Assembly (NCBI GenBank): GCA_016617785.1
Contig: JADILM010000007.1
Coordinates: forward strand, 124,001 to 188,000
Length of the DNA: 64,000 bases
Direction: 5' to 3'
From: Sporobolomyces roseus
Taxonomy: Eukaryota > Basidiomycota > Microbotryomycetes > Sporidiobolales > Sporidiobolaceae
Below the pieces are notes generated by a model. The model saw nothing but the letters and a program-made list of their open reading frames with translations. It was not told the DNA's origin and searched no databases. The first letter of the stretch is position 1, and each line of letters begins with the position of its first letter. The translations under genes and the position numbers were made by a program. Of this stretch, positions 6,700-64,000 are shown in pieces.

Positions 6700-7264
6700 T
6701 CTTGACTTGTAAATCTTGCTGCAGGGAGGTACAATTAGGAAAGAAAGAGTCGAAAGGGAATCAGAACGGGAGACAGCGATCCGAGGCCTTTTTCGGAGGG
6801 AACGGGATTAGACGAATTATCGCTGACAACTCGCTCGATATATTCTTCACGCTACCGTCTCCCGCTATTGTAGCTCCTCTGAAGCTCCGGTCCGTGAAGG
6901 CAAGAGGGCGAAATCCTGAAAAGTCTGCTCGGAAAATGCGATTCATCAACTCAAACATGCGGCTACGAAGCGGAATTCGGCTCACCATATCCTCGAGCCG
7001 TTGCTATCTCTGTCTAAGCGCCTTCCGAAGCGTCAAGCGGGAGCAGAAGGGGAGAAAAGCAAACTTCGGGGGATTAAGCATACGGAAGCCTCGAGTCTCG
7101 TTCGCAATCGTTCCATCGGTATGAAGAGAGGATCTAGGTAGGTTTGAGGTAATCCCGAGATATCCTGAGCTAGCGAGGTGAAGTGAGAGAGCAGAAAAGA
7201 TCGACTCGCTTCTCTCCTTCTTACCCTTCACGACTCGACTCGAAGCTAGCTTGGATCAACTCGA
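6700..7264. promoter_or_regulatory. Divergent promoter region: zinc-finger gene / F-box copy 1
   Basis: These 565 bases lie between the start codons of divergent genes. The right half (from about 7103) is similar to the region upstream of the F-box copy at the right edge of the window. The left half (6720-7000) has open frames but nothing I recognise. Confidence 0.4.
7180..7264 (+). repeat. F-box family 5' flank, copy 1
   Basis: This stretch immediately before the F-box copy 1 start is repeated at 12700-12783 and 63808-63909. All three share a purine-rich start, then AAAAGATCGA, then AAGCTAGCTTGGATC. It is probably the conserved proximal promoter or 5' UTR of the family. Confidence 0.7.
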
Positions 7265-8729
7265 ATGACTTCAGTAGATGGTATGGAAGATATGGTAAGC
7301 CTCTCCTAGCTTTCCTCGCTCTTCTCGCTGTTGCTGACCCTTCCCCTCTCTCATCAGTCAACCTCGAATGAAACGAACGCTACATCAGGAGGGAAGAGTA
7401 CAGAGATGGAGAATAGTAATCAGGCAGCTCCCAAGGTGAGTTCCGATTGATCGCTCGCCCCTTTGAGCCTCACTTAATCGCTTCTCTCTCTCCCTCAGAT
7501 CGATCGACTTTCCCTCCTCCCAAACGAACTCCTCGATCACATCTTCGACCTCGCCTACTCTATCAGGAGTCCTTCAACCGGCGCTTTATCGAAAAGACTC
7601 AGTCCCTTTCACATAACCGGACTTTATCGTCGAATCTACCTCGCAAAACCCGATAATCTCAGCATGCTTATCGATAGGATCAAGAGCTCGCCAGATCTGG
7701 GCGAATTGGTGTCGGATCTAATGTTATATAAAGTCTACGGCGACAAAGTCCCGCCCTTCGAGACCGTTGAGCTCGATCAATTCTTCAGTCGCCTCATTCG
7801 CCTCGAATCGCTCGACCTCGACAATGATCCCTATGGCGTCCTTTCCCACTCTGCGATCCCTATCTATTATCGACTACAACAGAGACTATGGAGCATTCGA
7901 CACTACCAGTACACCACATCTTCCACTCCTCACTCACTTCACAGTCACAGGCTTCGATGCGGACGATCTCTCGATCGCCTCTTTCTGTAATCTCTGCCCT
8001 TCCCTTACGCACCTCGCACTAGAGTGCGACTCGCCGTCTCACTCTGATCTACTCGAACTACTCCCTGTCAATCTATCGAGACTTGACCTTGAGTGTCGAG
8101 GTCTCGAAGCCGACGACCTATGCGAACGACATCTCTCCCGTTTCACCCATCTTCAGCATCTCGTACTCGACGACGGAATGTTCACTAGCACCCTTCCCTC
8201 TCATCTCCTCGAACTCCGTGCACTCGCAATACTCGAACTCGGTGCCGGACGAATCTCGACCAGCGAAATGAGCAGACTGTTCAACAAAGTTCCGATCAAT
8301 CGTCTCAGGCTGGATTTGGCGAGAGGGGAGATTGGTTATCGATTGGAAGTGGATGAGAACGGATCAGCGGGAGGAAGGTGGGTGCCGGGAGAGGGAAGAT
8401 TGGCAGCGGGAGATTGGGTCATTCCGAAGTTCGATCTGCAGGGAGACGGAGACTTTACCCTCGAAGGAGCTCGTGAGATGTTACGTGAAGCTGAAGAGCT
8501 AGGTGTCGAGGTTGAGGGGTCGATTATCAGAGCTATCGAAGTGATGGACGCTTATTACCTCGAAATCGCCAACATCGCCATCTATCGCTGCTTCAGAGAC
8601 AGGACCTTCAGCCACTATTTGGACGTACAGGAGCTGCATCTACACTCTCGACTCCCTCATCTCGACCTCGCCTCTCTCGATCCGAACAACCTCAAACTCG
8701 TCAAGACAGATTTACCTGATGAAGGATGA
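7265..8729 (+). pseudogene. F-box/LRR family copy 1, frameshifted
   Basis: Exon 1 (7265-7294), exon 2 (7358-7435) and exon 3 (from 7499) are in phase and give an F-box-like segment, LSLLPNELLDHIFDLAY. This leads into DRIKSSPDLGELV and LIRLESLDLDNDPYG. Compared with copy 2 at 13192, 107 net bases are then missing near 7836-7842, so the leucine-rich remainder (PLLTHFTVTGFDADD and onward) lies in a different frame; the original frame stops by 7990. A second lesion changes a Trp codon to TGA at 8727-8729, eleven codons from the end seen in copy 2. Intact F-box/LRR proteins link substrates to SCF ubiquitin ligases. This copy could give only an F-box-bearing short protein or a separate C-terminal protein. 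Confidence 0.8.
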
Positions 8730-9126
8730 TTCGCTTTGAGCTTGGAAGCGGGAGAGGTCTGAGCAGGCGAGAATGCTGCACAAATCGGTGATAGCGGAAG
8801 AAGTGCGAGGAAAATAGCTAGACGAGGGTCCGAGACGAGGAGAAGATCTGGGTTTGAAAACTGTTTTGTAACGAGTAGTTCTTTTCATCTGTCTCTGTCT
8901 CTGAGTTCTCTCGACGTTACACGAGAGCAGACACTGATGCTAACCCAGCGAGTCTGACAAAGAAATTGCACAGAAAGAAAGTAAAACTTATTGTTGATCG
9001 CGAATTCGAGATCTAGCGAATGAACCTCCAGTCTAGCCATAAACATTCGTGTGATCTTTCCATCTACACGACGCGAACCTCTACAATGTTGATCAGGAGA
9101 TTACCTCGAGAACAGAGAGTTGAGAC
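8730..9126. other. Convergent intergenic region
   Basis: These 397 bases separate the F-box copy 1 frame from the AAA ATPase stop. I see no supported gene. The region 9000-9080 could hold one further AAA exon if GTGAGT at 9122-9127 is used as a splice donor. Confidence 0.4.
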
Positions 9127-12533: not shown

Positions 12534-12699
12534 GACTCTTGAGGAGTGAGGAGAAGGAGAGAGAGGAGAACTCTCGGAAATTCGGGAGAATCGACGAGCG
12601 AGGGGAGTTTGAGGAATGACTAGCTAGCTTGCAGTAGAAGTATCTAGGCTATACAAGCTCGTCAGGGGGCTCATAGAGCTCGTCTGAGTGGGCGACTTG

Positions 12700-12783
12700 G
12701 AGTGGGAGAGGGGAAAAGATCGACTCGCTTTGCTCCTTCTCACACCTCACTACTCGACTCGAAGCTAGCTTGGATCAATTCGA
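12700..12783 (+). repeat. F-box family 5' flank, copy 2
   Basis: Second copy of the conserved flank (see 7180-7264), again ending directly at an ATGAC start. The intron that follows holds a short direct repeat of TCCTAGCTCCCCTCGCTC. Confidence 0.7.
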
Positions 12784-13206
12784 ATGACTACAGTAGATCT
12801 AATGAAAGATATGGTAATCCTCTCCTAGCTCCCCTCGCTCTCCTAGCTCCCCTCGCTCTCCTCGCTGGTGCTAACTCTTTCTCTCTCTCGTCAGTCAACT
12901 TTGAATCAAACGAACGCTACATCGAGAGAGAAGACTATGGAGGCAGTAGAGGATGATCAGACAGCTCACAAGGTAAGCCTCCACCATTTCGCTGACCGCT
13001 CTGAGCGTGACTCAATCCGAGTTCCCCTCCTCAGATCGATCGACTTTCCCTCCTCCCGAATGAACTCCTCGATCACATCTTCGACCTTGCATACTCTATC
13101 AGGAGTCATTCGACTGGTGTTCTATCGAAACGACTCCTTCCATTCCATATAACCGGACTTTATTTACCTCACGAAACGCGAAAGTATCAGCATGCTTATC
13201 GATAGG
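12784..13206 (+). pseudogene. Detached F-box exons of copy 2
   Basis: Exon 1 (12784-12813), exon 2 (12895-12972) and exon 3 (from 13035) keep the reading phase seen in copy 1 and encode the same F-box-like LSLLPNELLDHIFDLAY. Relative to copy 1, eight bases are missing just after GGACTTTAT (about 13162). The frame then runs into TAG at about 13204-13206, so these exons no longer join the leucine-rich frame that starts at 13192. Whether the cell still makes a short F-box peptide is unknown. Confidence 0.75.
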
Positions 13207-14385
13207 ATCAAGAACTCGCCAGATCTGAGCAAATTAGTGCTGCATCTGCTACTTTCCAAATCATCTGGCGACAAAGTCCCGACCTTCGAGACCGTCGAGA
13301 TCGATCAATTCTTCAGTCGCCTCGTTCGCCTCGAATCGCTCGACCTCGACCATGATCCCTTTGGCATGCTTGACGCTCTAGTAGCATCTATGTCTTCTTC
13401 CAAACTCCCTCGTCTTCGCCATCTTACTTCGTCGGTCTCATCCGACTTTGAACATCCGCTACTCGACTTTACCGCCTTTCCCACTCTCCAATCGATAACT
13501 GTCATCGACTACAACTCAGAAGATGGAGCGTACGATACTGCCATTATGCCACACCTTCCGCTCCTTACTCACCTCACAGTTGCAGGCTTGTACGCCGACG
13601 ACCTTTCGATCGCCTCTTTCTGTAATCTCTGCCCTTCCCTCACGCATCTCACACTAGAATGCGGCTCGCCGGCTTACTTTGACTTGCTCAACCTTCTTCC
13701 TGTCAATCTATTGAGGCTCGACCTTGAGTTTATGGGTCACAGAACCGACACTCTTTGCGAACGCCATCTCTCCCATTTTACCCATCTTCAGCATCTCGTA
13801 CTCGGCAACGGAATGTTCACCAGCACTCTGCCTTCTCATCTTTTACACCTGGATTCGTTAGAAATCCTTGAGCTTGGTAAGGGACAAATTTCGACCAAAG
13901 CAATGAGCGAACTCCTCAATAACGTTGCGATCACTCACCTCAAGCTCGATCTCGTGAATGGCAATGTCGGTTATAGGCTGAATGTGAACGACATTGGATC
14001 GGTAGAAGGGAGTCTGCCGCCAGGAGAGGGAAGAGTATTAGGTGGAGATTGGGTGGTTCCGAACTTTGATCTGCAGGGAGACGGAGACTTTGTACACGAA
14101 GGAGCTCGTGAGATGTTACGTGAAGCTGAAGAGCTAGGTGTCGAGGTTGAGGGGTCAATCATCAGAGCTATCGAAGTGATGGACGCTTATTACCTAGAAA
14201 TCGCCAACATCGCCATCTATCGTTGCTTCAGAGACAAGGCCTTCAATCACTACTCGAATGTCAAGGAACAGAATCTATACGCTCGACTTCCCCTCCTCGA
14301 CCTCGATTCTCTCGATGCGAGCAACCTCAAACTCGTCAAAATCGATTTACCCGAGGAAGGATGGTTCGCGTTGACGTTGGAATAG
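13192..14385 (+). CDS. F-box/LRR family copy 2, leucine-rich part
   Basis: This 397-residue open frame covers the whole leucine-rich region: FFSRLVRLESLDLDHDPFG, PHLPLLTHLTVAGLYADD, FCNLCPSLTHLTLEC, SHFTHLQHLVLGNGMF and HLDSLEILELGKGQIS. It ends with a charged tail (EGAREMLREAEELGVEVEGS, MDAYYLEIANIAIYRCF). Leucine-rich repeats of this kind normally form a curved protein-binding surface behind an F-box. The F-box exons lie upstream but are out of frame by an 8-bp deletion, so translation would need the internal ATG at 13192. The last 140 bp of homology to copy 1 differ only at synonymous sites. The product could be an F-box-less LRR protein or a very young pseudogene. Confidence 0.65.
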   Translation: MLIDRIKNSPDLSKLVLHLLLSKSSGDKVPTFETVEIDQFFSRLVRLESLDLDHDPFGMLDALVASMSSSKLPRLRHLTSSVSSDFEHPLLDFTAFPTLQSITVIDYNSEDGAYDTAIMPHLPLLTHLTVAGLYADDLSIASFCNLCPSLTHLTLECGSPAYFDLLNLLPVNLLRLDLEFMGHRTDTLCERHLSHFTHLQHLVLGNGMFTSTLPSHLLHLDSLEILELGKGQISTKAMSELLNNVAITHLKLDLVNGNVGYRLNVNDIGSVEGSLPPGEGRVLGGDWVVPNFDLQGDGDFVHEGAREMLREAEELGVEVEGSIIRAIEVMDAYYLEIANIAIYRCFRDKAFNHYSNVKEQNLYARLPLLDLDSLDASNLKLVKIDLPEEGWFALTLE

Positions 14386-15812: not shown

Positions 15813-16244
15813 ACAGCAATCTTGGGAGCGAGGTAGTATCGAATGTGACCTTGTGGGAAAGGGTATTCGACGAGGAGAGGAACTGTTCGAGGGGAAGTGA
15901 GGAACGTCAACAAACGTGCACTCATGGGGCAGGACTAGAGGGGATGGACGAGAGACTCGCCTTCATTCGACATGTGCAACTATTCGAGAGTGACATGAGG
16001 TAGAGAAAGTCGATTTTGAGGGAGGGAAAGAGGAGAATTGAATCAGTTTCGTCGGTAACGATGCAAGTATCAGAACGAAAGACTCACGTGAACGCTTTCG
16101 GATAAAGGAGTACTCTTTGCAAAGTTGGAGAGATATTTGATCGAGAAAGTGAGGGAAACAGCCTATTCGAAAACGAACAAAAACGAACGAAAACGAAAAT
16201 CCGGGTCAGTCAGCGATTCTTGCGAGAGGACGGTGGAAGGATGG
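15813..16244 (-). pseudogene. Duplicated fragment of the PCNA 3' end
   Basis: These 432 bases are a close copy of 21757-22191 in the same orientation. They contain PCNA exon 8 ([20 protein letters not shown]), the 19-nt exon 9 and nearly all of exon 10 ([18 protein letters not shown]), with the introns between them. The upstream PCNA exons and the terminal Asp-Glu exon are absent, so it cannot make PCNA. Exon differences from the intact gene are all synonymous, and the intron between exons 8 and 9 is identical. Its left end abuts the 3' flank of the Yar1-like gene and its right end the promoter of the zinc-finger gene at 16515. Confidence 0.9.
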
Positions 16245-16514
16245 TGTGAGGGGCGAAGAACGAGAGCGGGTGGAGTTGGTAGCTGTGGAGCAGCGGAGCA
16301 AGAGACGCTCGACTCCTGTCTTTTGGTCTTTTACCGTCGTCCGGACTTGTCCTCGTGGATTGCTCAATTCCACGAAACGATGTGAATCGAGGAGAATCGA
16401 GGAGACCGTTTCTCCTCTATCTCTATCTCTCTCTCTCTCTGGGTGCCACCATCAGCGAATCACGACTTCTTACCGCCGTAACCCGCTAGGCTGTGAAGCC
16501 TCTCTGCTCGAAGG

Positions 16515-18043
16515 ATGCTGGTGCACCTCGGAGTGAACTACACAAACATTGACGCCAATACCAATCGGTGCGGTGAGTGCACGAATCTCATACGTGGTTC
16601 GGATGATCGCGTAAGTGAAGACTTCTGCGATCATCGTCGATATTTCGAAGACATCCTCGAATTCGCAATTAACTCACTCTTGGTCTCTTTCAACCTCTCA
16701 GAACATCCGACGACACATCGAAAATGTCCACCTCAAGCTCAAAGACAAGCATATCTACTGCCAGTATTGTGACTTTTCGTCGTTGAAAGAGGTTTGCGCT
16801 TTGCACAGAATTCTTTTTTCGCATCGATGGCTTATTTTTTCTTGAATTCAAAAGAACTTCCATACGCATCTTGAGCATCACAAACCCATCGTGGGCCGAA
16901 TTCTGTTCTGCTGTCCTGGTTGCAAGATCGCTTGGTTCACCACCATGTGAGTCTCGCAGAGTCTGCTTTTGCAAGTTTCGGATGGAGCAATGCTGATCTT
17001 GAGCAACATTTAGACGGTCCTTGAGCCGTTATCACCTCAATACAAAGGTCTGTCCTGATCCCAGCGATGGAAGCAGGGAGCCGAACCTCAATGGGCGCAA
17101 TTGGGACCGTGAGAGCCACAAGTTCATTTCGAATCCCAATGTGAGCGCGCTCACTATGGAGACACATGTGGGATACTGAGTCCGCGCTCTTTGTAGTTCC
17201 CTCAAGTCCGCCTAGGCCCCGCTCTCGACCCACCTCCTCGACCTTTGCAAAGAACGAGGTCAAACGAAGATTCGCCCTCGACGCAAATAATCGCAGACGC
17301 CCAGCGTTCGGCTGTTTCAGGTTTTTCCTCTGATAATGCTGTAGAGAATGGTGAGAGTCGCGTTGTAGAACAAGCTGAACAAGTGCGTCCCGCTGTCTCC
17401 GAAGCACATGCGATTCTAACAGCACTTTCACCTCTAGTCGCACGGCACGCTTCATCCGCAACCAGCTTTACAGCCGCCGCAGGAGGAAGCAACGACCAAG
17501 TTCAAGATTGATGCGTTTCAAAACAAGGTGAGCACAGAATTCCATTGTTCGTTCACATTCGTTTCGCGCTCATTTCGAATCTGAATGGGTCGAAGCTTCG
17601 AATTCGACGTCTCTTCGAGGAAGACATCGATCGGTACTACATCGCATTGACGAACCGTAGAACGTTCGAAGCTGAAGGCATTCTCCGCAAGATCATCGAA
17701 GAGGTGCAGAATTCGATCGCAACAGGTAAAACGTATTATCTCGATGTGAGCGGCGGTCCCTCACTCGACGCCTACCCTGCAGCGCTGAGAAAACACTTTT
17801 GTAATCGCACAGAAAATGGAACTCGAACATCAGGTCTACTACGCTTATATTCCGTTCGCCAAACGTTACTTTAGAGTCGACAAGCAAGGGAAAATTCATG
17901 AATATGCTGAGGAAGTCCGAGCGCGACGCAAGCGCAAGATAAGAGCATCTATTTCCCATCGAGTCGCTCAGATTCATGGATTGAGGAAAACGAGAAGAAT
18001 CGTCGTTTTTAGGGATCCCTTTTCGCCTTTCTCATCTGCCTAG
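16515..18043 (+). CDS. Zinc-finger family protein A
   Basis: The predicted protein of about 353 residues is assembled from eight exons. Zinc sites in order are CGEC with HIENVH across an intron, CQYCDFSSLKE with HTHLEHH, and a C2HC module, CPGCKIAWF with YHLNTKVCPDP. A Pro/Ser-rich linker follows, then a helical C-terminal domain ending KRYFRV and ASISHRVAQIHG. The exon borders match those of the paralogue at 19426 almost one to one. At about 17975-17985 one base appears to be missing: the alternative frame reads EENEKNRRF then stop, matching the paralogue's end (WERKMNRRF), while the open frame runs on to 18043. The ATG at 16515 gives an N-terminus a few residues shorter than in the paralogue. 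DNA or RNA binding is likely from the fingers, but I do not recognise the family. Confidence 0.65.
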
Positions 18044-18658
18044 AGTCTTCCCTCCCTTAGTACTCCCTCCTTCGCTATAGTCGCTTACTCTCGATTCGTC
18101 TGCTCTCTCACTTTAACCCTTGTCAATTAATTGCGTTTCAGTCTCGTTCAATCTTTCTACTCTGGTCCTCGATCGTCTCGGACCCTATCGACCGCCCGAC
18201 CATAAGCTAGCTACATCTTCGAGGTGTTAGTAGCTCCCTTAGTGGGAGGGGAGGGAAAGAGAGAAGCGGGGAGTGGGGGAGGAAAAGAGGGAGGAAGGGA
18301 GGAGAAGAGAGGAGAGGAGCTCACCTACAATGGGTCTCGCAGACAGATCTAGAGATAATGATATAGGTCTTGGGCCATCAGGAGCAGCAGCAGAAGTGGC
18401 GGACATTGGGTGGAGAGTAGGCAAAAGGGAGAGAAACGAAACAGCGAGGTTTGGTCCCTTACACTTCACTAGAATCATAAGAAAGTACTCAGGAGGCATC
18501 AAGACTACCCCACAAACACTCCCAGGCCGCTTTTGGACTCTTACAGCTCTCCCTCGCTCTTCTCTCTCCAATCTCATCAAGTCTCATCCGTCAACTTCTC
18601 GGTCTCATTCTGCTTTGTTGGATGCTCGCGAGGGTCAGCTGAGGAGACAAGAGGGGAA
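18044..18658. other. Intergenic region between zinc-finger gene A and a degenerate frame
   Basis: These 615 bases have overlapping open frames on both strands at 18240-18580, none of which I recognise. A purine-rich run (GGGAGG repeats) lies at 18240-18320. No supported gene is called. Confidence 0.35.
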
Positions 18659-19170
18659 TGGAGTCGAACATCACCAAGCTCGGCGGGGTTCTTTCGTTCT
18701 TTCGTAAGTCTCTGTTTTTCCACTGTTTTCCCCCGATTCCACTTTGTAGCGACGAGTTAAGCTGATCTTTTGCTCCTTCTGACTTCGTAGGTGCTACCGC
18801 AAGTTCCTTTCACAGAGCCAGAGACTGCTCATAAGGAATCGACGCTTCGCTTTCGTCCAAAACTTCGCTTCGATCGCTCTTCGCCCTCGCTTTCGTTCTC
18901 AGCTCTAGCTTCTCTCAACCTCAAACTGCATCCGTCGACTATGTTTAGTGTCTGCTCCTTCGTGACAGCCTCCTCTCGGTCCTCTCGGCCCTTTCGGCGA
19001 CGTCGAAGAGGAGTTCTGAAAGCAACACTTCGCTTCTCGCCAAATCGCAAAACACGGCACCGGATTCGCTCTTGCGACAGCTCAGATCGATCGCGCCTGC
19101 ATTGAGGAGTACAAGCAACGACACGCCTCTCAGAGCTGGACTGCCAGGCGAAGGATGCCGCTTGTGCTGA
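18659..19170 (+). pseudogene. Possible degenerate small coding region
   Basis: An ATG at 18659 opens MESNITKLGGVLSFF, followed by a GTAAGT donor and an acceptor at 18790. In one frame after that acceptor the reading continues to TGA at 19168-19170 with only two internal stops (TAA near 18832 and TAG near 18943). It ends with SLLRQLRSIAPALRS and AGLPGEGCRLC. Codon choice resembles real genes nearby. I do not recognise it. It may be a decayed gene, a gene with introns I have not resolved, or chance. Confidence 0.25.
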
Positions 19171-19425
19171 AAGTGGGTCCGAAAGTAAAGTGGGTCGCAT
19201 TTCTGAAAGCTTCCTTTAGCCGCTGATCTACGTCACTACGCATCGATCGTAAGCAGGGGTCTCACGTTAGATCTTGGCGCAAACGTGCTTCGAAACTTCC
19301 GAACCACGTCTCTTACCGTCACCCGCGGTCTCTTTCCTCTGAAAACTGGCTTGTGCCTCTTTCTCTCTCACTTCTGCCCCTTCTTGTCAGACTGTCAGCT
19401 ACTAACAAGTACACCAAGTTTGAGC

Positions 19426-20929
19426 ATGTCACAGCATGTCGAATACACAGCCGATGGCAAACCTCTCTGGGAAAAGGTTAAGAAAGGCCACTACCGTTGT
19501 CTTGTTTGCGAGGTTGAGTCTTTCAAGCGAAGTCACGGCGTGAGTCTTCTCATGCCGAGAAGCGACAGCGATTTGTGAAGTATTGACTGATCACAAGTGG
19601 TGATTGACCTCGCAGAACATCAAGAGGCACGTTAAACGCCATTTGGGGCTTGGTCGAATCTTTTGCCCGTACTGTGACGTTTCCGCAGCTGTGCCCTACG
19701 TCCGTAATCTTCTCTACAACCCGATGCTCAAATTGTCGACTGATCCTTCTCCACTCGGATACTACAGGACCTCGATAGACACATCCATCGAGTTCACGTG
19801 AAACGCCCTGAGTTCAAGTGCTGCCCCGGCTGCAAGATTGCGTGGTATCGCCAGCTGTAAGTCTGATCAGGCGTCTCTTGAGTCTGGTGTCTGGTTGCTG
19901 AATGTTCTGCTGATCCAGGCGCACACTCAGGCGAGAGCACGTAAACAAAAAAGACATCTGTCCTGATCCCCGGAACGGGCAAAGGCAGCCGAATCTGCAC
20001 GGACGTAAGTGGAACCGCCGACTCTGCAAATTCGAAGCCGTCGCAGGGGTGAGCTTGTTGATCCGTTTTTTAAATTCTCCACGCTGATACTGTCGTATCA
20101 ATCTTCAGCTTCCACAAGTTCGAGTAGGTGCAGCCTTGAACCCTCCCCCTCGTCCTGACCGTCAAGATTCGGACCGAGAGGTCGAGCAAAATGACGAGTC
20201 CGGAAACGAGCTAGAGACCGGGAGTGCGCACGAAGACTCGGGTGAAGAAGCGTACAGCTCGGAGGAGGAGTCAGCTCGCGAGGAGGAAGTGAGTAGCTTG
20301 TTGATTCGCTTTCGGTTTTTCTCTCATGCTAACGAAGTATTTTCATGTTCGAAGCCTCCTACTCCGGGACCCTCGACAGCTCCAGCTCGAGATGCTGCTC
20401 AGGAACAACGTGATCTGAATCACAGGAGGAAGGTGAGTCTCGCAGATAACGAGACTTGGCGATCAAGCTGATCAGTCTGTCTCGCACACACTGCACGCAG
20501 AATCAAATCCAAGCTCTCGTAAAGGCTGAATGGGGACGTTTCATGATCAGCTATGATGACCACCATTTCATCCAAGCTGGCAAGGAACTGCAAGAGATTG
20601 AGAGGACGGTGAAGAATTTCAAGAATGGAATACTTTACCCGTTTCTCGAGGTATGTTATCGATCATTCTTTCCTTCAATGTACAATGATCGACTTCACTG
20701 ACGTTCCAATGAACGCCTGTAGAAGAAACGCGAACACAACAGGCTCTTCTTCGAGTACATGCCCTTCACTGGTCGATACTTCCACGTTCTCGCCGACGGA
20801 AGTTTCGAAGAGCGCAAGTCTCCTGCTACCGGAGCTGGAAGACCTCAGGCCTCTATCTCTCACCGTACCGCAGCTCTACATGGGATTGACAAGGCAGATT
20901 GGGAGAGGAAGATGAACCGTCGTTTTTAG
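19426..20929 (+). CDS. Zinc-finger family protein B
   Basis: The predicted protein has about 343 residues in eight exons and starts MSQHVEYTADGKPLWEKV. It carries CLVC (Cys25/Cys28) with HVKRH, a classical C2H2 finger CPYCDVSAAVPYDLDRHIHRVH split by an intron after VPY, and a C2HC module (CPGCKIAWY, then EHVNKKDICPDP). An acidic Ser/Glu linker (about residues 155-200) and a Pro-rich piece follow. The helical C-terminal domain includes IQALVKAEWGRFMISYDD, KREHNRLFFEYMPFTGRYF and ASISHRTAALHG, ending NRRF. All phases join cleanly, so this copy looks intact. It shares exon layout with the gene at 16515 and its finger module with the minus-strand gene at 5449. A nuclear nucleic-acid-binding protein is the likeliest role. 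The C-terminal domain is not one I know. Confidence 0.75.
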
Positions 20930-21677
20930 CTTTTTCTTTCGTTCTTTTCAACCCTCGTTTTTTTAGTCGTCTCCCCTGGTTTTTTATTCGTCTCTTGCTA
21001 GCTTGCGACCCCAAGATACCTTGAGGCTCCCGAACCTGTGAATTTGAATTCTTTAACAGTCGTACGAGTGCCGTCGGGATTTTACAGAGGTTGATTGCTC
21101 TCTTCGTGATTGCCATTGCTTGTCTGTATCTTGTTTCAAGCTTCTTCTTTGACCTTAGCATAGAATACCGCGGACTGACGCTCGATGTCGCTGGTACGGG
21201 CACTCTGCATTCCGAATCTTACGATTCCTTTTATACCCGTTGAATCGAGAATTGTTGGTTCGCAGAAGTCCAGATTCCGTCATGATGCAAGCAGTACTCG
21301 TGCGAAGCAAGCGTCAGCGAGCGAGAATGGAGTCAGTATAGAGGGTTCCCCGATTCGCTACGAGCTCTTTCGCTCCGAGTCGGCTATCAATTTTCCTGCT
21401 CAAACAGTCAAAGAGGCGAGCCAGACGCTGATGTCGAGATACGCCGTCACACGAATGGAATCTGACGTTGATAGAAAAGTGCTCGATCCATGGAACGAGA
21501 AGCGAGCAGGTATTGGAAGAAAGAAAGAAGTCCCTTGATTTTACACAGAAAAGAGAAAGATGACGGGAACGACTACTACTGAAAGCCCTTTACGTTACAG
21601 ATTGACTGACAAGATTGAGGGGTGCGAGGTGAGACGACGAGGGGAAGAACAAGCGAAGTGAGTTAGATGGGGGAAGA
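20930..21677. other. Intergenic region, zinc-finger gene B to PCNA
   Basis: These 748 bases lie between two convergent genes. T-rich runs just after 20929 fit a 3' end. An open frame at 21185-21538 on the plus strand (117 codons) has no motif, intron or homologue I can see, so I leave it uncalled. Confidence 0.4.
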
Positions 21678-24106
21678 TTACTCGTCCTATGTGATCGGAT
21701 CAGTGTTTTTCGTCAGTGACGGAGTAGGATTGAGGTGAAGCTGATAATGTAGACTCACAGCGATCTTGGGAGCGAGGTAGTATCGAATGTGACCCTGTGG
21801 GAAAGGGTATTCGACGAGGAGAGGAACTGCTCGAGGGAAGGTGAAAAACGTCAATAAATGTGTACTTGAGAAGCAGGATTAGAGGGGATGGACGAGAGAC
21901 TCGCCTTCATTCGACATGTGCAACTATTCGAGAGTGACATGAGGTAGAGAAAGTCGATTTTGAGGGAGGGAAAGAGGAGAATTGAATCAGTTTCGTCGGT
22001 AACGATGCAAGTATCAGAACGAAAGACTCACGTGAACGCTTTCGGATAGAGGAGTACTCTTTGCAAAGTTGGAGAGATACTTGATCGAGAAAGTGAGGGA
22101 AACAGCCTATTCGAAAACGAACGAAAACGAACAAAAACGAAAATCCGGGTCAGTCAGCGACAATTCTTGCGAGAGGACGGTGCAAGGATGGCGAGAAGGG
22201 TGGAGACGAGAGAGTGGAGAGTGTGAAGAAGAGAAGAGAAAGGCGAGGAAAGCGTACCTGTTGTACGTTGATAACAACCTTCATCTTTTCCTCCTTGTCA
22301 TCAGCGCCAGCCTTGCCCTTACCCTTCGCCTTGGCTTTAGTAGTAGTCTTCTTCTTGGGTGCAACCTTCTTCTTGATCTCCTTCTTTGCTTTTTTCTTCT
22401 CTTTCTTCGGTTGAACCGAAGACTTTCGTTTCTTTGAAGCGGCAGATTCAACTTTAGGCTTCTTCTTGGGGGATTCGGAACCGTTCTTGCCGTTCGTTCC
22501 ATCCTCGTTGTCGGAGAGATCGATCACTTCAGGTTTCGTGTCCTCTTGAGTAGCATCAGCGGTTTCTCCATCTGCCTTCTTGATAACGACCTGAACAGAT
22601 TAAGCGACTCGTCAGCTTGCGATTCACAAAGACGTCGCATCGAGAGAGTTGTGCTTACATCACCATCCTCATCTTCTTCTTTAGGTTCAGCTTCCTCCTC
22701 ATCATCATCTTCTCTCGGTTCTTCTTCCTCTTCTTCCTCTTCTTCTTCCTCATCACTACCCTTCTCACTTCCCTCCTCATCCTCATCACTTCCCTCCTCA
22801 TCATCCGAACGACTCGCACCTTTCTCTTCACTAGGTTTGAGCGTAACTGAAGCAGTTCCAATATCACCATCCGCCGAGAACCTCACTCCATCTTTCGAAA
22901 CCTCAATCTTGACCGATTCTCCCAACTCTTTCAAGTCCCTAATGATCCTCGCGAATTCGGTAGCGGGTAAACTAATCTCTGCGTCGTAGACCGTGTCGGG
23001 AATCCCAAGGTGTTCTTGATCGATATCCATCAACTTCATCTCGTATTCTCCTACTCGATCTTGTTTCTTCGCTTCGAACAACAAGGCGAGTACGTCGACT
23101 GATTCGTCGGCTCGGAGAGTAACGAGATCGTTGTTGCCGGCACATTTGATGATTTTTTGAAGAGAAGTGAGTGACATTCCGAGTGACCTGTTCAACGATC
23201 AACAGTGTCAGTTTGACCTTATTCCAGCAGCAGTCTGAATGAGTTGAAAAATGCTTACATATCACGATCGCAACGGTATTCAGAGAATCCAGATTTTGCG
23301 AGATTTAGGGAAACCAAAGCGACGTGAGAGTTGTCCATAGCTTGAAGTTTCTGTTTCGTCTCGAATGCTCTCCATTAGTACCTGTAGCTTGAGTAGTGAT
23401 GGGGCGAGAGAAGGGAGAACGAACGATTCCTTCATCGGTGCAATCGAAATTGGCGTCGGTAACTAATTCCTTGACGGCTGTACATTGAGAAAGTTACTCC
23501 AGTCAGTGACACGGTCATACAGGCTTGGTACTCTTCCAACGTACCATCGAGAATCTGCAAGGGGAACAGAGAGAGGTCAGAAAAACGCGTCCGCATCAAT
23601 CAGAGAGAGGAAAGAGAACTCACTTTTTTGAGGAGTTCAGCTTGATCAAGTTTGGCTTCCTGTCATGATTTGTAATCGAGTTGGGTTTCTAGTCAGCGAG
23701 GAGGTCCACCAAGGGGAGAAGGGAGAGAGATTGCTGGAAGAGGTTTTTTCCGTCGCGTAGTAGAGTTCTGCTCCAAAAGCGCGTAGTTTACTACTTTGGA
23801 GAGCGTGTGAGAGTTGGATGAGGGTGGTGTGAATGTCTCTCGAGTGTAGGTTGAGCGCGATATCGAGTTTGGAAGTGGAAGCGAGATGGAGGAGGGAAGA
23901 GGGAAATCCAACGACTGGTTCCCTACTCGCAGATCTGCTTAGATCCCTCTCCCGTTCATCTACTACCTCCGTGTAGACAGTCGCGTTCAAGAGGTAAAGA
24001 TAGAGAGAGAAATGGAAAAAAGTTGGGAGGACGCGTCGAAGATCGGGAAAGAGGAGAAGAGGAGAGAGAGAGGAAAGGGAGTAGAAGGGGAGAGACTCAC
24101 GAGCAT
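21678..24106 (-). CDS. PCNA sliding clamp with a large loop insertion
   Basis: PCNA is the trimeric DNA clamp for replication and repair. Eleven coding exons join in phase to 409 residues; usual length is 258-265. Exon 1 has only 6 nt (ATGCTC at 24101-24106), exon 3 has 10 nt (23545-23554) and exon 9 has 19 nt (21905-21923). Clear motifs are [38 protein letters not shown] (interdomain region), [15 protein letters not shown] with Lys164 at the human number, and [10 protein letters not shown] at the end. After TLKPSEE (about 186) there are roughly 150 extra residues to [10 protein letters not shown] (353): an acidic run, [16 protein letters not shown] and a Lys-rich tail. The acidic part ends exon 6 and the rest is exon 7. 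Alternative splicing could remove some of it. The intron after exon 9 starts with GC. The gene is divergent from a DnaJ-TPR gene. Confidence 0.93.
21757..22191. repeat. Direct repeat, PCNA copy
   Basis: This part of the intact PCNA gene (exons 8-10 with introns and part of intron 7) is duplicated at 15813-16244 in the same orientation, about 5.9 kb away. The two copies bracket the zinc-finger genes A and B. Confidence 0.9.
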
Positions 24107-63618: not shown

Positions 63619-63807
63619 GATCAGAGGGCTGAAGACCTAGAGCCTAGTGTTCGACAGCAAGAGTAGCAGGAATGAAGAGAAACCTTCGGAGATTGAGCAG
63701 TCAGAGTTCAAGGAAACTTTCAAGACCTGTTCGCGATCATGAGCTAGGTACGTAGAGAGGATCTGGATGGATCCGAGGTGCTTCAGAGTTATCCTGAGCG
63801 ATAGAAG

Positions 63808-63909
63808 TGAAGTGAAAGAGCAAAAAAGATCGAGCAGCATCTCTTCCTCTGACACTTCACGGCTCGAGTCAAAGCTAGCTTGGATCGGCTCGAATTAATT
63901 CAGTTTAGT
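63808..63909 (+). repeat. F-box family 5' flank, copy 3
   Basis: Third copy of the flank found at 7180-7264 and 12700-12783, with the same AAAAGATCGA and AAGCTAGCTTGGATC blocks. Similarity to copy 1 extends left to about 63735. Confidence 0.7.
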
Positions 63910-64000
63910 ATGCAAACAATGCGGTAAGCTCTGCTGTGCTCTACCTCACCATCTCGCTGTTACTGACCTTTTCTCTCTTTCGTCAGTGAACTTCGAATCC
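63910..64000 (+). CDS. F-box/LRR family copy 3, 5' end (partial)
   Basis: The family first exon and intron are recognisable: a GTAAGC donor at 63924 and a CGTCAG acceptor at 63986, with exon 2 running off the window. The ATG used by copies 1 and 2 has become ATT; the first ATG left is at 63910. Exon 1 then has 14 nt and exits in a different phase (ATGCAAACAATGCG). Whether the frame is restored lies beyond the window. Confidence 0.5.

What the first reader, a model, noticed from the sequence alone, without database searches (positions are those of the whole stretch)
21678..24106. PCNA with a ~150-residue insertion in one loop
The joined exons give 409 residues against the usual 258-265. All canonical segments are present and Lys164 keeps its human number, so residues 1-185 are collinear. 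The excess sits between TLKPSEE and [10 protein letters not shown], where human PCNA has a loop of about ten residues (about 184-195). The insert is an open frame over two exons with strong composition bias (acidic, then Lys-rich). PCNA length is highly conserved in eukaryotes, so a clamp with three such tails per ring would be striking.
Basis: partly seen in the sequence, partly recalled or inferred. Interest (0 to 1): 0.88.

Follow-up and report, generated by a model that had tools for sequence, protein, structure and literature searches.

The report
Fungal PCNA with a long arm
This yeast's DNA sliding clamp carries a long, floppy, charged arm on one face of the ring; relatives across its fungal phylum have the same kind of arm, which probably contains a nuclear entry signal.

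Summary
In detail: the minus-strand gene at 24106-21678 joins into an 11-exon, 409-residue PCNA with an intact clamp core and 156 extra residues (188-343) in the back-face loop. It is the only complete PCNA gene found in the genome. But such arms are not rare. In the search with this protein, 117 of 120 listed hits have a loop of at least 31 residues, every named one a basidiomycete; in a search from a chytrid PCNA, 120 of 120 listed hits have 6-19. A review already notes an insertion of over 80 residues in Cryptococcus neoformans PCNA. What I did not find in print is the phylum-wide pattern: a predicted disordered, acid- and lysine-rich arm with a nuclear-localisation-like cluster. K[KR]x[KR] is in 160 of 160 long loops from two searches and in 0 of 120 chytrid-search proteins. 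Best reading: the arm is a built-in nuclear import signal, useful where PCNA leaks out during semi-open mitosis, rooted beside K164 and the yeast Rad5/Rad18 contact. Function is inferred, not shown. A cryptic in-frame splice and three short gene models in relatives leave truncated isoforms possible.

The parts
21678..24106 (-). PCNA gene, start codon to stop codon, 11 exons, 409 aa
   Evidence: exon joining; Pfam PCNA_N E 7.3e-54 and PCNA_C E 4.1e-42
24101..24106 (-). exon 1 (Met-Leu)
23624..23659 (-). exon 2
23545..23554 (-). exon 3 (10 nt)
23425..23477 (-). exon 4
23259..23350 (-). exon 5
22659..23187 (-). exon 6: most of the core up to residue 187 and the acidic part of the arm
22258..22590 (-). 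exon 7: Lys-rich part of the arm and the strand [10 protein letters not shown]; 333 nt
22032..22106 (-). exon 8
21905..21923 (-). exon 9; the intron after it begins GC
21759..21826 (-). exon 10
21678..21686 (-). exon 11 (Asp-Glu-stop)
22659..22823 (-). arm, acidic part, residues 188-242
   Evidence: homologous region of P0001 predicted without structure, pLDDT mostly below 50
22591..22658 (-). intron 6, 68 nt, phase 0, inside the arm
22288..22590 (-). arm, Lys-rich part, residues 243-343
22525..22542 (-). DTKPEV (259-264), motif [DE]xKP[DE][VI]
   Evidence: 19 of 69 genus-level rows against 0.3 expected by shuffling
22501..22527 (-). VIDLSDNED (264-272), resembles a SUMO-interacting motif (recalled pattern)
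   Evidence: strict pattern in 4 of 10 Sporobolomyces rows and 3 of 69 genus-level rows
22453..22473 (-). SPKKKPK (282-288): S-P next to a basic cluster
   Evidence: kinase reading recalled, untested
22423..22434 (-). KKRK (295-298), nuclear-localisation-like cluster
   Evidence: KKRK in 136 of 160 long loops (98 of 117 and 38 of 43); 56 of 69 genus-level rows against 1.3 expected
22819..22819 (-). first base of a cryptic splice donor AAAG|GTGCGA
   Evidence: score 6.3, real donors 2.5-8.2 with each left out in turn; in frame with an acceptor before 22571, which would drop 60 residues
15813..16266 (-). partial copy of PCNA (intron 7 part to exon 10), 93.4% identical, no N-terminal exons

Best explanation
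SHOWN BY SEQUENCE OR PREDICTION: this is the replicative sliding clamp PCNA, the only complete copy found in a 22.4-Mb genome of a yeast close to Sporobolomyces roseus. The canonical core is intact, and the loop between the strands that end near residue 182 and begin near 347 is replaced by a 156-residue arm, acidic then lysine-rich, predicted disordered. Proteins from all three basidiomycete subphyla sampled have an arm at the same place, 34 to about 199 residues long; its shortest forms (smuts and Malassezia) are little more than an acidic run, usually K-P, and a KKRK-type cluster. INFERRED: the common and probably original job is nuclear import. The basic cluster is a classical nuclear localisation signal held away from the ring by a flexible linker; the acidic part screens it and keeps the arm off DNA. 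In basidiomycetes whose nuclear envelope opens at mitosis PCNA leaks into the cytoplasm and must be taken back before the next S phase. INFERRED, second layer: because the arm is rooted beside K164, lineage-specific motifs in it (KPE[VI], a SUMO-interacting-like VIDLSD in the Sporobolomyces roseus group, S-P beside KKxK) tune import or PCNA modification.
For: Gene model, core and fold; AlphaFold2 of the 94%-identical P0001 gives 91-97 mean pLDDT for most core blocks and 38-51 for residues 191-340 without structure, best Foldseek match Aspergillus fumigatus PCNA, target TM 0.96. Other PCNA matches in the genome: only a 3' fragment. Arm at the same place: 117 of 120 hits and 43 of 51 further hits have at least 31 residues; 120 of 120 hits of the chytrid-query one search have 6-19. 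K[KR]x[KR] in 160 of 160 of those long loops, KKRK in 136 of 160, and K[KR]x[KR] in 0 of 120 proteins anywhere. Genus-level rows: KKRK 56 of 69, 1.3 expected, at most 6 in 1000 shuffles. Arm present in proteins read from contigs too short for an intron-rich gene: P0022, P0043, P0047, P0059 leave 118, 137, 78 and 211 nt beyond the coding sequence, whereas this gene has 1199 nt of introns. In C. neoformans GFP-PCNA is nuclear and diffuses into the cytosol at mitotic envelope breakdown (passages of PMC6392335 and PMC7794384). Yeast Rad5 and Rad18 need PCNA K168 and K196, next to K164 on the back face (passages of PMC13050448); in the alignment these correspond to R168 and V348, on either side of the arm.
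Against: No transcript, protein or localisation data for this gene were available. PCNAs without the arm are nuclear too (general knowledge), so the signal is not needed in principle. K[KR]x[KR] is easy to meet in a lysine-rich stretch: chance alone gives 38.3 of 69. 24 of 160 long loops lack exact KKRK. The acidic-before-basic order holds in 60 of 69 rows, not all, and the second half is net positive in only 26 of 69. Animals also open their nuclear envelope and lack the arm. In a paper on Sporidiobolales nuclear division a term search found no mention of open mitosis, so semi-open mitosis is unproven for this yeast. Three basidiomycete gene models lack most or all of the arm (P0034, P0071, P0134).
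Confidence: 0.5

Rival explanations
1. The arm is chiefly a control element for PCNA modification. Rooted next to K164 and the Rad5/Rad18 contact, it docks or blocks E3 ligases, or is itself SUMO-modified at KPE or VKKE sites or binds SUMO, and so sets the choice of damage-tolerance pathway.
For: Position: K164 lies between strands 157-163 and 166-172 and the arm leaves strand 177-182 at the same end of the sheet (strand order); K168 and K196 of yeast flank it. [DE]xKP[DE][VI] in 19 of 69 rows, 0.3 expected; psi-K-x-E in 49 of 69, 23.4 expected, and 26 of 26 Agaricomycetes; strict SUMO-interacting pattern in 4 of 10 Sporobolomyces rows, about 0 expected. The minor yeast SUMO site K127 is absent here (G127).
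Against: The motifs differ between lineages: KPE[VI] is in 0 of 13 Ustilaginomycotina and 0 of 26 Agaricomycetes rows, and the strict SUMO-interacting pattern in 3 of 69. The shortest arms have no such motif, only acid plus KKRK.
Confidence: 0.22
2. An electrostatic arm that touches DNA, histones or other fork proteins, or repels them, and changes how the ring loads, slides or unloads.
For: Strong charge: 56 D/E and 36 K/R in 159 residues; acidic and basic blocks in most relatives.
Against: No matching domain in Pfam and no solved PCNA with such an arm among the 60 chains listed from the PDB; lengths vary from 34 to 199, which fits a linker better than a fixed surface.
Confidence: 0.12
3. A tolerated low-complexity expansion in a surface loop with no selected role.
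For: Rapid change: in the closest relative the core is 100% and the insert 88% identical, in S. blumeae 96% and 56%, in R. toruloides 91% and 47%; length varies within genera.
Against: Motifs stay while the rest turns over (KKRK, KPE, EPK); apart from three short or partial models, no named basidiomycete among the listed hits had lost the arm.
Confidence: 0.1
4. The arm is largely removed by alternative splicing, so that the working clamp is near normal length, with the long form minor or stage-specific.
For: Cryptic donor at 22819 with score 6.3 and in-frame acceptors that would drop 60 or 121 residues. Phakopsora pachyrhizi has both a 382-aa and a 264-aa model; Rhodotorula sp. JG-1b and Sporisorium scitamineum have short or partial models. 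A 2002 paper on Coprinus cinereus PCNA has 'alternative truncation' in its title (title seen only, in a reference list).
Against: The short Phakopsora and Rhodotorula models also delete the core strand residues VxLK, and the Sporisorium model deletes the next strand too, which looks like mis-modelling. No in-frame, core-sparing pair that removes 125 residues or more scores well (best 5.3, with an acceptor at -1.0). Arms are present in four contigs too short for intron-rich genes.
Confidence: 0.08

Closest known systems
Cryptococcus neoformans PCNA (PMC9225081; P0099, 344 aa)
   Same: Insertion at the same back loop; acidic run, K-P, PKKRK
   Different: 94 residues instead of 159; the review calls it an insertion of over 80 residues absent from the other species compared
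Ustilago / Sporisorium PCNA (P0126, P0125, 289 aa)
   Same: Same place; acidic run, K-P-A-KKKRK
   Different: 37-residue arm without a long Lys-rich part
Sporobolomyces roseus JCM 5353 protein (P0001, 413 aa)
   Same: 94% identical over the full length; identical core
   Different: four residues longer; insert 88% identical; VINLSD for VIDLSD
Coprinus cinereus PCNA (Hamada et al. 2002, title seen only)
   Same: A basidiomycete PCNA; the title mentions alternative truncation
   Different: Paper not read, so whether the truncation concerns this loop is unknown to me
Canonical PCNA, S. pombe 6qh1 and A. fumigatus 5tup
   Same: Core fold and collinear residues 1-185
   Different: Back loop of ordinary length

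Membership tests
Eukaryotic PCNA | PCNA_N and PCNA_C domains | tested here: met
   Pfam E 7.3e-54 and 4.1e-42, PCNA_C in two stretches around the arm
Eukaryotic PCNA | K164, L126/I128 and the LAPKI end conserved | tested here: met
   K164; HLGIPD, i.e. L126 and I128, and LAPKIADE; columns L126, I128, L252, A253 invariant in 61 rows
Eukaryotic PCNA | PCNA fold | tested here: met
   P0001 model: best Foldseek hits are PCNAs, target TM 0.96; tested on the 94%-identical relative, not on the window protein
Eukaryotic PCNA | Forms a trimeric ring on DNA | not testable with these tools
   no biochemistry
Basidiomycete long-loop PCNA (grouping made here) | Loop of at least 31 residues between the strand ending in VTLK and the next strand | tested here: met
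   159 residues
Basidiomycete long-loop PCNA (grouping made here) | Basic cluster K[KR]x[KR] in the arm | tested here: met
   KKRK at 295-298
Classical monopartite nuclear localisation signal | Binds importin-alpha and drives import | not testable with these tools
   pattern only; consensus K-K/R-x-K/R recalled
SUMO-interacting motif | Hydrophobic core followed by acidic residues, conserved | tested here: inconclusive
   VIDLSDNED fits the pattern; found in 4 of 10 Sporobolomyces rows and 3 of 69 genus-level rows
Rad1 (9-1-1 clamp) | Rad1 domain as best match | tested here: not met
   PF02144 E 9.5e-9, far weaker than the PCNA models

The most novel reading that the evidence does not exclude
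Basidiomycota as a phylum replaced the PCNA back loop with a disordered arm, three per ring, that couples nuclear re-import after (semi-)open mitosis to control of K164 modification: one flexible element carries the import signal and, in some lineages, SUMO-related and S-P motifs, and it stands where Rad5 and Rad18 dock in yeast. Regulated truncation by splicing would switch it off.
Probability: 0.2. Interest if true: 0.75.

Novelty: new variant of a known kind. Interest (0 to 1): 0.5.

Why it matters
PCNA is treated as a protein of fixed length and nearly fixed surface. Here a whole phylum appears to carry a charged disordered arm on the face that receives ubiquitin and SUMO, with a nuclear-localisation-like cluster that no protein listed in the chytrid-query search has. 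That makes two questions testable: whether clamp import had to be reinforced when nuclear envelopes open at mitosis, and how Rad5/Rad18-type docking works when the docking surface is interrupted. It also warns that gene predictors may splice the arm out.

Tried and rejected
Considered and set aside: (1) the excess as unspliced intron or mis-joined exons: rejected as the main reading, because the frame, position and motifs recur in relatives and four short contigs carry the arm in one frame. (2) A second, normal PCNA in the genome: PCNA_N matches only this gene; PCNA_C also matches a 3' fragment 5.9 kb away, which lacks the N-terminal exons. (3) A domain inside the insert: none in Pfam. (4) Sites for CDK: [ST]PxK in 7 of 69 rows against 4.7 expected, no enrichment; S-P beside a basic pair in 6 of 69 against 1.2, but one shuffle in 1000 also reached at least 6, so weak. 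(5) Donor scores were misaligned by one base and are replaced. (6) The shuffles keep composition but not local clustering, and rows are related, so the excess over shuffles is not a probability.

Rows dropped: the 100 basidiomycete rows were picked by hand: 86 of 120 hits, 13 of 51 further hits and the window protein. Left out were 33 other hits (mostly repeats of a genus, and the short models P0034 and P0071), one plant row (put with the outgroups), the short model P0134, and further rows. The unselected counts use all listed hits. The searches list only the best 120 of 1868, 2526 and 5784 hits. Wallemia, Dacrymycetes and other early lineages did not appear under those names in the lists I saw, so 'phylum-wide' means the lineages sampled.

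Literature: searches (open-licence library only). I read section 23 of PMC9225081 and passages only of PMC6392335, PMC7794384, PMC12584667, PMC13050448, PMC7225939 and PMC548137. Hamada et al. 2002 was seen as a title in a reference list.

Full report
WHAT IS THERE. The gene lies on the minus strand, start codon at 24106, stop codon ending at 21678. Eleven exons join to 1230 nt and 409 residues; all introns are GT-AG except intron 9, which is GC-AG. Pfam finds PCNA_N (E 7.3e-54) and PCNA_C (E 4.1e-42, in two stretches on either side of the excess). Against solved structures residues 1-185 align without gaps and the C-terminal part aligns again to the end. K164 is present; position 127 is Gly, 168 Arg, 178 Ala.

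ONE CLAMP GENE. In the 22.4-Mb, 15-contig genome PCNA_N matches only this gene. PCNA_C matches this gene and a second place at window 15813-16266, which is a 93.4% identical DNA copy of the stretch from intron 7 to exon 10 without the N-terminal exons. So the long protein should be the working clamp. The closest protein is from Sporobolomyces roseus JCM 5353 (P0001, 413 aa, 94% identical); the cores are identical and the inserts 88% identical.

THE ARM IS COMMON IN BASIDIOMYCETES. I measured the loop in every listed hit by aligning the two flanks. Of the 120 hits listed for this protein 117 have a loop of 35-199 residues; the exceptions are a plant protein (7), a partial Rhodotorula model (14) and a Phakopsora model (13) whose species also has a 132-residue version. 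Of the 51 further hits from a search with a Sympodiomycopsis PCNA 43 have at least 31; the eight short ones are three chytrids, two Sesamum, one bird, one unnamed and one Sporisorium model that lacks the loop although another model of that species has it. In a search from a chytrid PCNA 120 of 120 listed hits, including other fungi, plants and animals, have 6-19 residues, 119 of them at most 11. Median lengths in my genus-level rows are 37 in Ustilaginomycotina, 72 in Tremellomycetes, 117.5 in Agaricomycetes, 100 in rusts and 134 in Microbotryomycetes. A review of fungal PCNA had noted the insertion in one species, C. neoformans (PMC9225081). I found no statement that it belongs to the phylum in the searches, which cover open-licence papers only.

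IS IT IN THE MESSAGE? No transcript of this gene was available. In relatives, several proteins come from contigs barely longer than the coding sequence: P0022 (418 aa in 1375 nt), P0043 (357 in 1211), P0047 (362 in 1167) and P0059 (315 in 1159); all carry the arm, 152, 92, 111 and 65 residues. In P0022 the start MLEAK is continuous, where the window gene has an intron after ML. These look like spliced transcripts, though the intron number of their genes was not seen. On the other side, a cryptic donor at 22819 scores 6.3, within the range of real donors of this gene (2.5-8.2 when each is left out in turn), and is in frame with an acceptor before 22571 (drop of 60 residues) and another before 22388 (drop of 121). 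The short models of relatives mostly cut into the core strands. A truncated isoform is therefore possible, a fully spliced-out arm unlikely.

WHAT THE ARM LOOKS LIKE. AlphaFold2 on P0001 with a 61-row alignment gives mean pLDDT of 91-97 for most core blocks, 75 for the inter-domain linker and 38-51 with no helix or strand for residues 191-340; the model's best PDB match is A. fumigatus PCNA. Between this protein and other Sporobolomyces the core is 95-100% identical and the insert 56-88%. Some short motifs stay. K[KR]x[KR] is in 117 of 117 and 43 of 43 long loops of the two searches, exact KKRK in 98 of 117 and 38 of 43, and K[KR]x[KR] is nowhere in 120 of 120 proteins of the chytrid-query search. 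At genus level KKRK is in 56 of 69 rows with 1.3 expected from shuffles (at most 6 in 1000), while the loose pattern has 38.3 of 69 expected and is less telling. [DE]xKP[DE][VI] is in 19 of 69 (0.3 expected) but confined to Microbotryomycetes, Cystobasidiomycetes and Tremellomycetes; psi-K-x-E is in 26 of 26 Agaricomycetes rows; a strict SUMO-interacting pattern such as VIDLSD is in 3 of 69 rows and 4 of 10 Sporobolomyces. The most basic window follows the most acidic one in 60 of 69 rows. The shortest arms, in smuts, read acidic run, K-P, KKKRK, Gly/Ser, which suggests what the original core was.

HOW IT PROBABLY WORKS. The feature shared by the arms is a basic cluster of the classical nuclear-localisation type on a flexible, mostly acidic linker. 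In C. neoformans GFP-PCNA is nuclear and diffuses into the cytosol when the nuclear envelope opens in mitosis (PMC6392335 and PMC7794384, passages). A clamp that leaks out every cycle and must be back before S phase would profit from a strong import signal. This link is inference; animals open their envelope without such an arm, and I found no evidence on envelope opening in Sporobolomyces. The site of the arm adds a second possibility. Strands 157-163 and 166-172 enclose K164, and the arm leaves strand 177-182, so by strand order the root lies at the same edge of the sheet as K164. In yeast Rad5 and Rad18 bind a back-face surface that needs K168 and K196 (PMC13050448, passages); by the alignment these are R168 and V348 here, one on each side of the arm. 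The arm is thus placed to tune modification, and lineage-specific motifs might do that.

VERDICT. The idea of a unique oddity is replaced by that of a phylum-level variant of PCNA, already glimpsed in print in one species. Existence of a translated, disordered arm is very likely (about 0.9, my estimate); its role as import signal is the best single reading at about one half.

Noticed in passing
window 15813-16266 (-): 455-bp copy of the PCNA 3' part (part of intron 7 to exon 10), 93.4% identical, 5.9 kb downstream. Exon differences 2, 0 and 2 in exons 8, 9 and 10; the translated exons 8 and 10 are identical; intron 8 has 0 of 108 differences but intron 9 has 14 of 78, a patchiness that suggests gene conversion.
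   Followed up: partly
window about 16500-21000 (+): Two multi-exon, zinc-finger-like gene stretches between the PCNA gene and its fragment look alike by eye, as if a block had been duplicated in tandem with the PCNA end.
   Followed up: no
window 23585 and 24031: ACGCGT, the fungal MCB cell-cycle box (name recalled), inside introns 2 and 1 of PCNA; 7 such sites in the 64-kb window.
   Followed up: no
window 7840-8747 and 13475-14382: Direct DNA repeat of 908 bases, 79% identical, with a further 79% stretch at 7165-7843 / 12684-13371: tandem gene copies.
   Followed up: no
window 7100-7369 and 63729-63998: 75% identical stretches at the two ends of the window.
   Followed up: no
P0204 (Blyttiomyces helicus): The only chytrid-search hit with a loop above 11 residues: 19 residues, GSSVDDERDEKDEKDKKKL, a small charged loop in a chytrid.
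   Followed up: no
Agaricomycetes rows: All 26 have a psi-K-x-E site, mostly VKKE, in the arm, often followed by DVEM.
   Followed up: no
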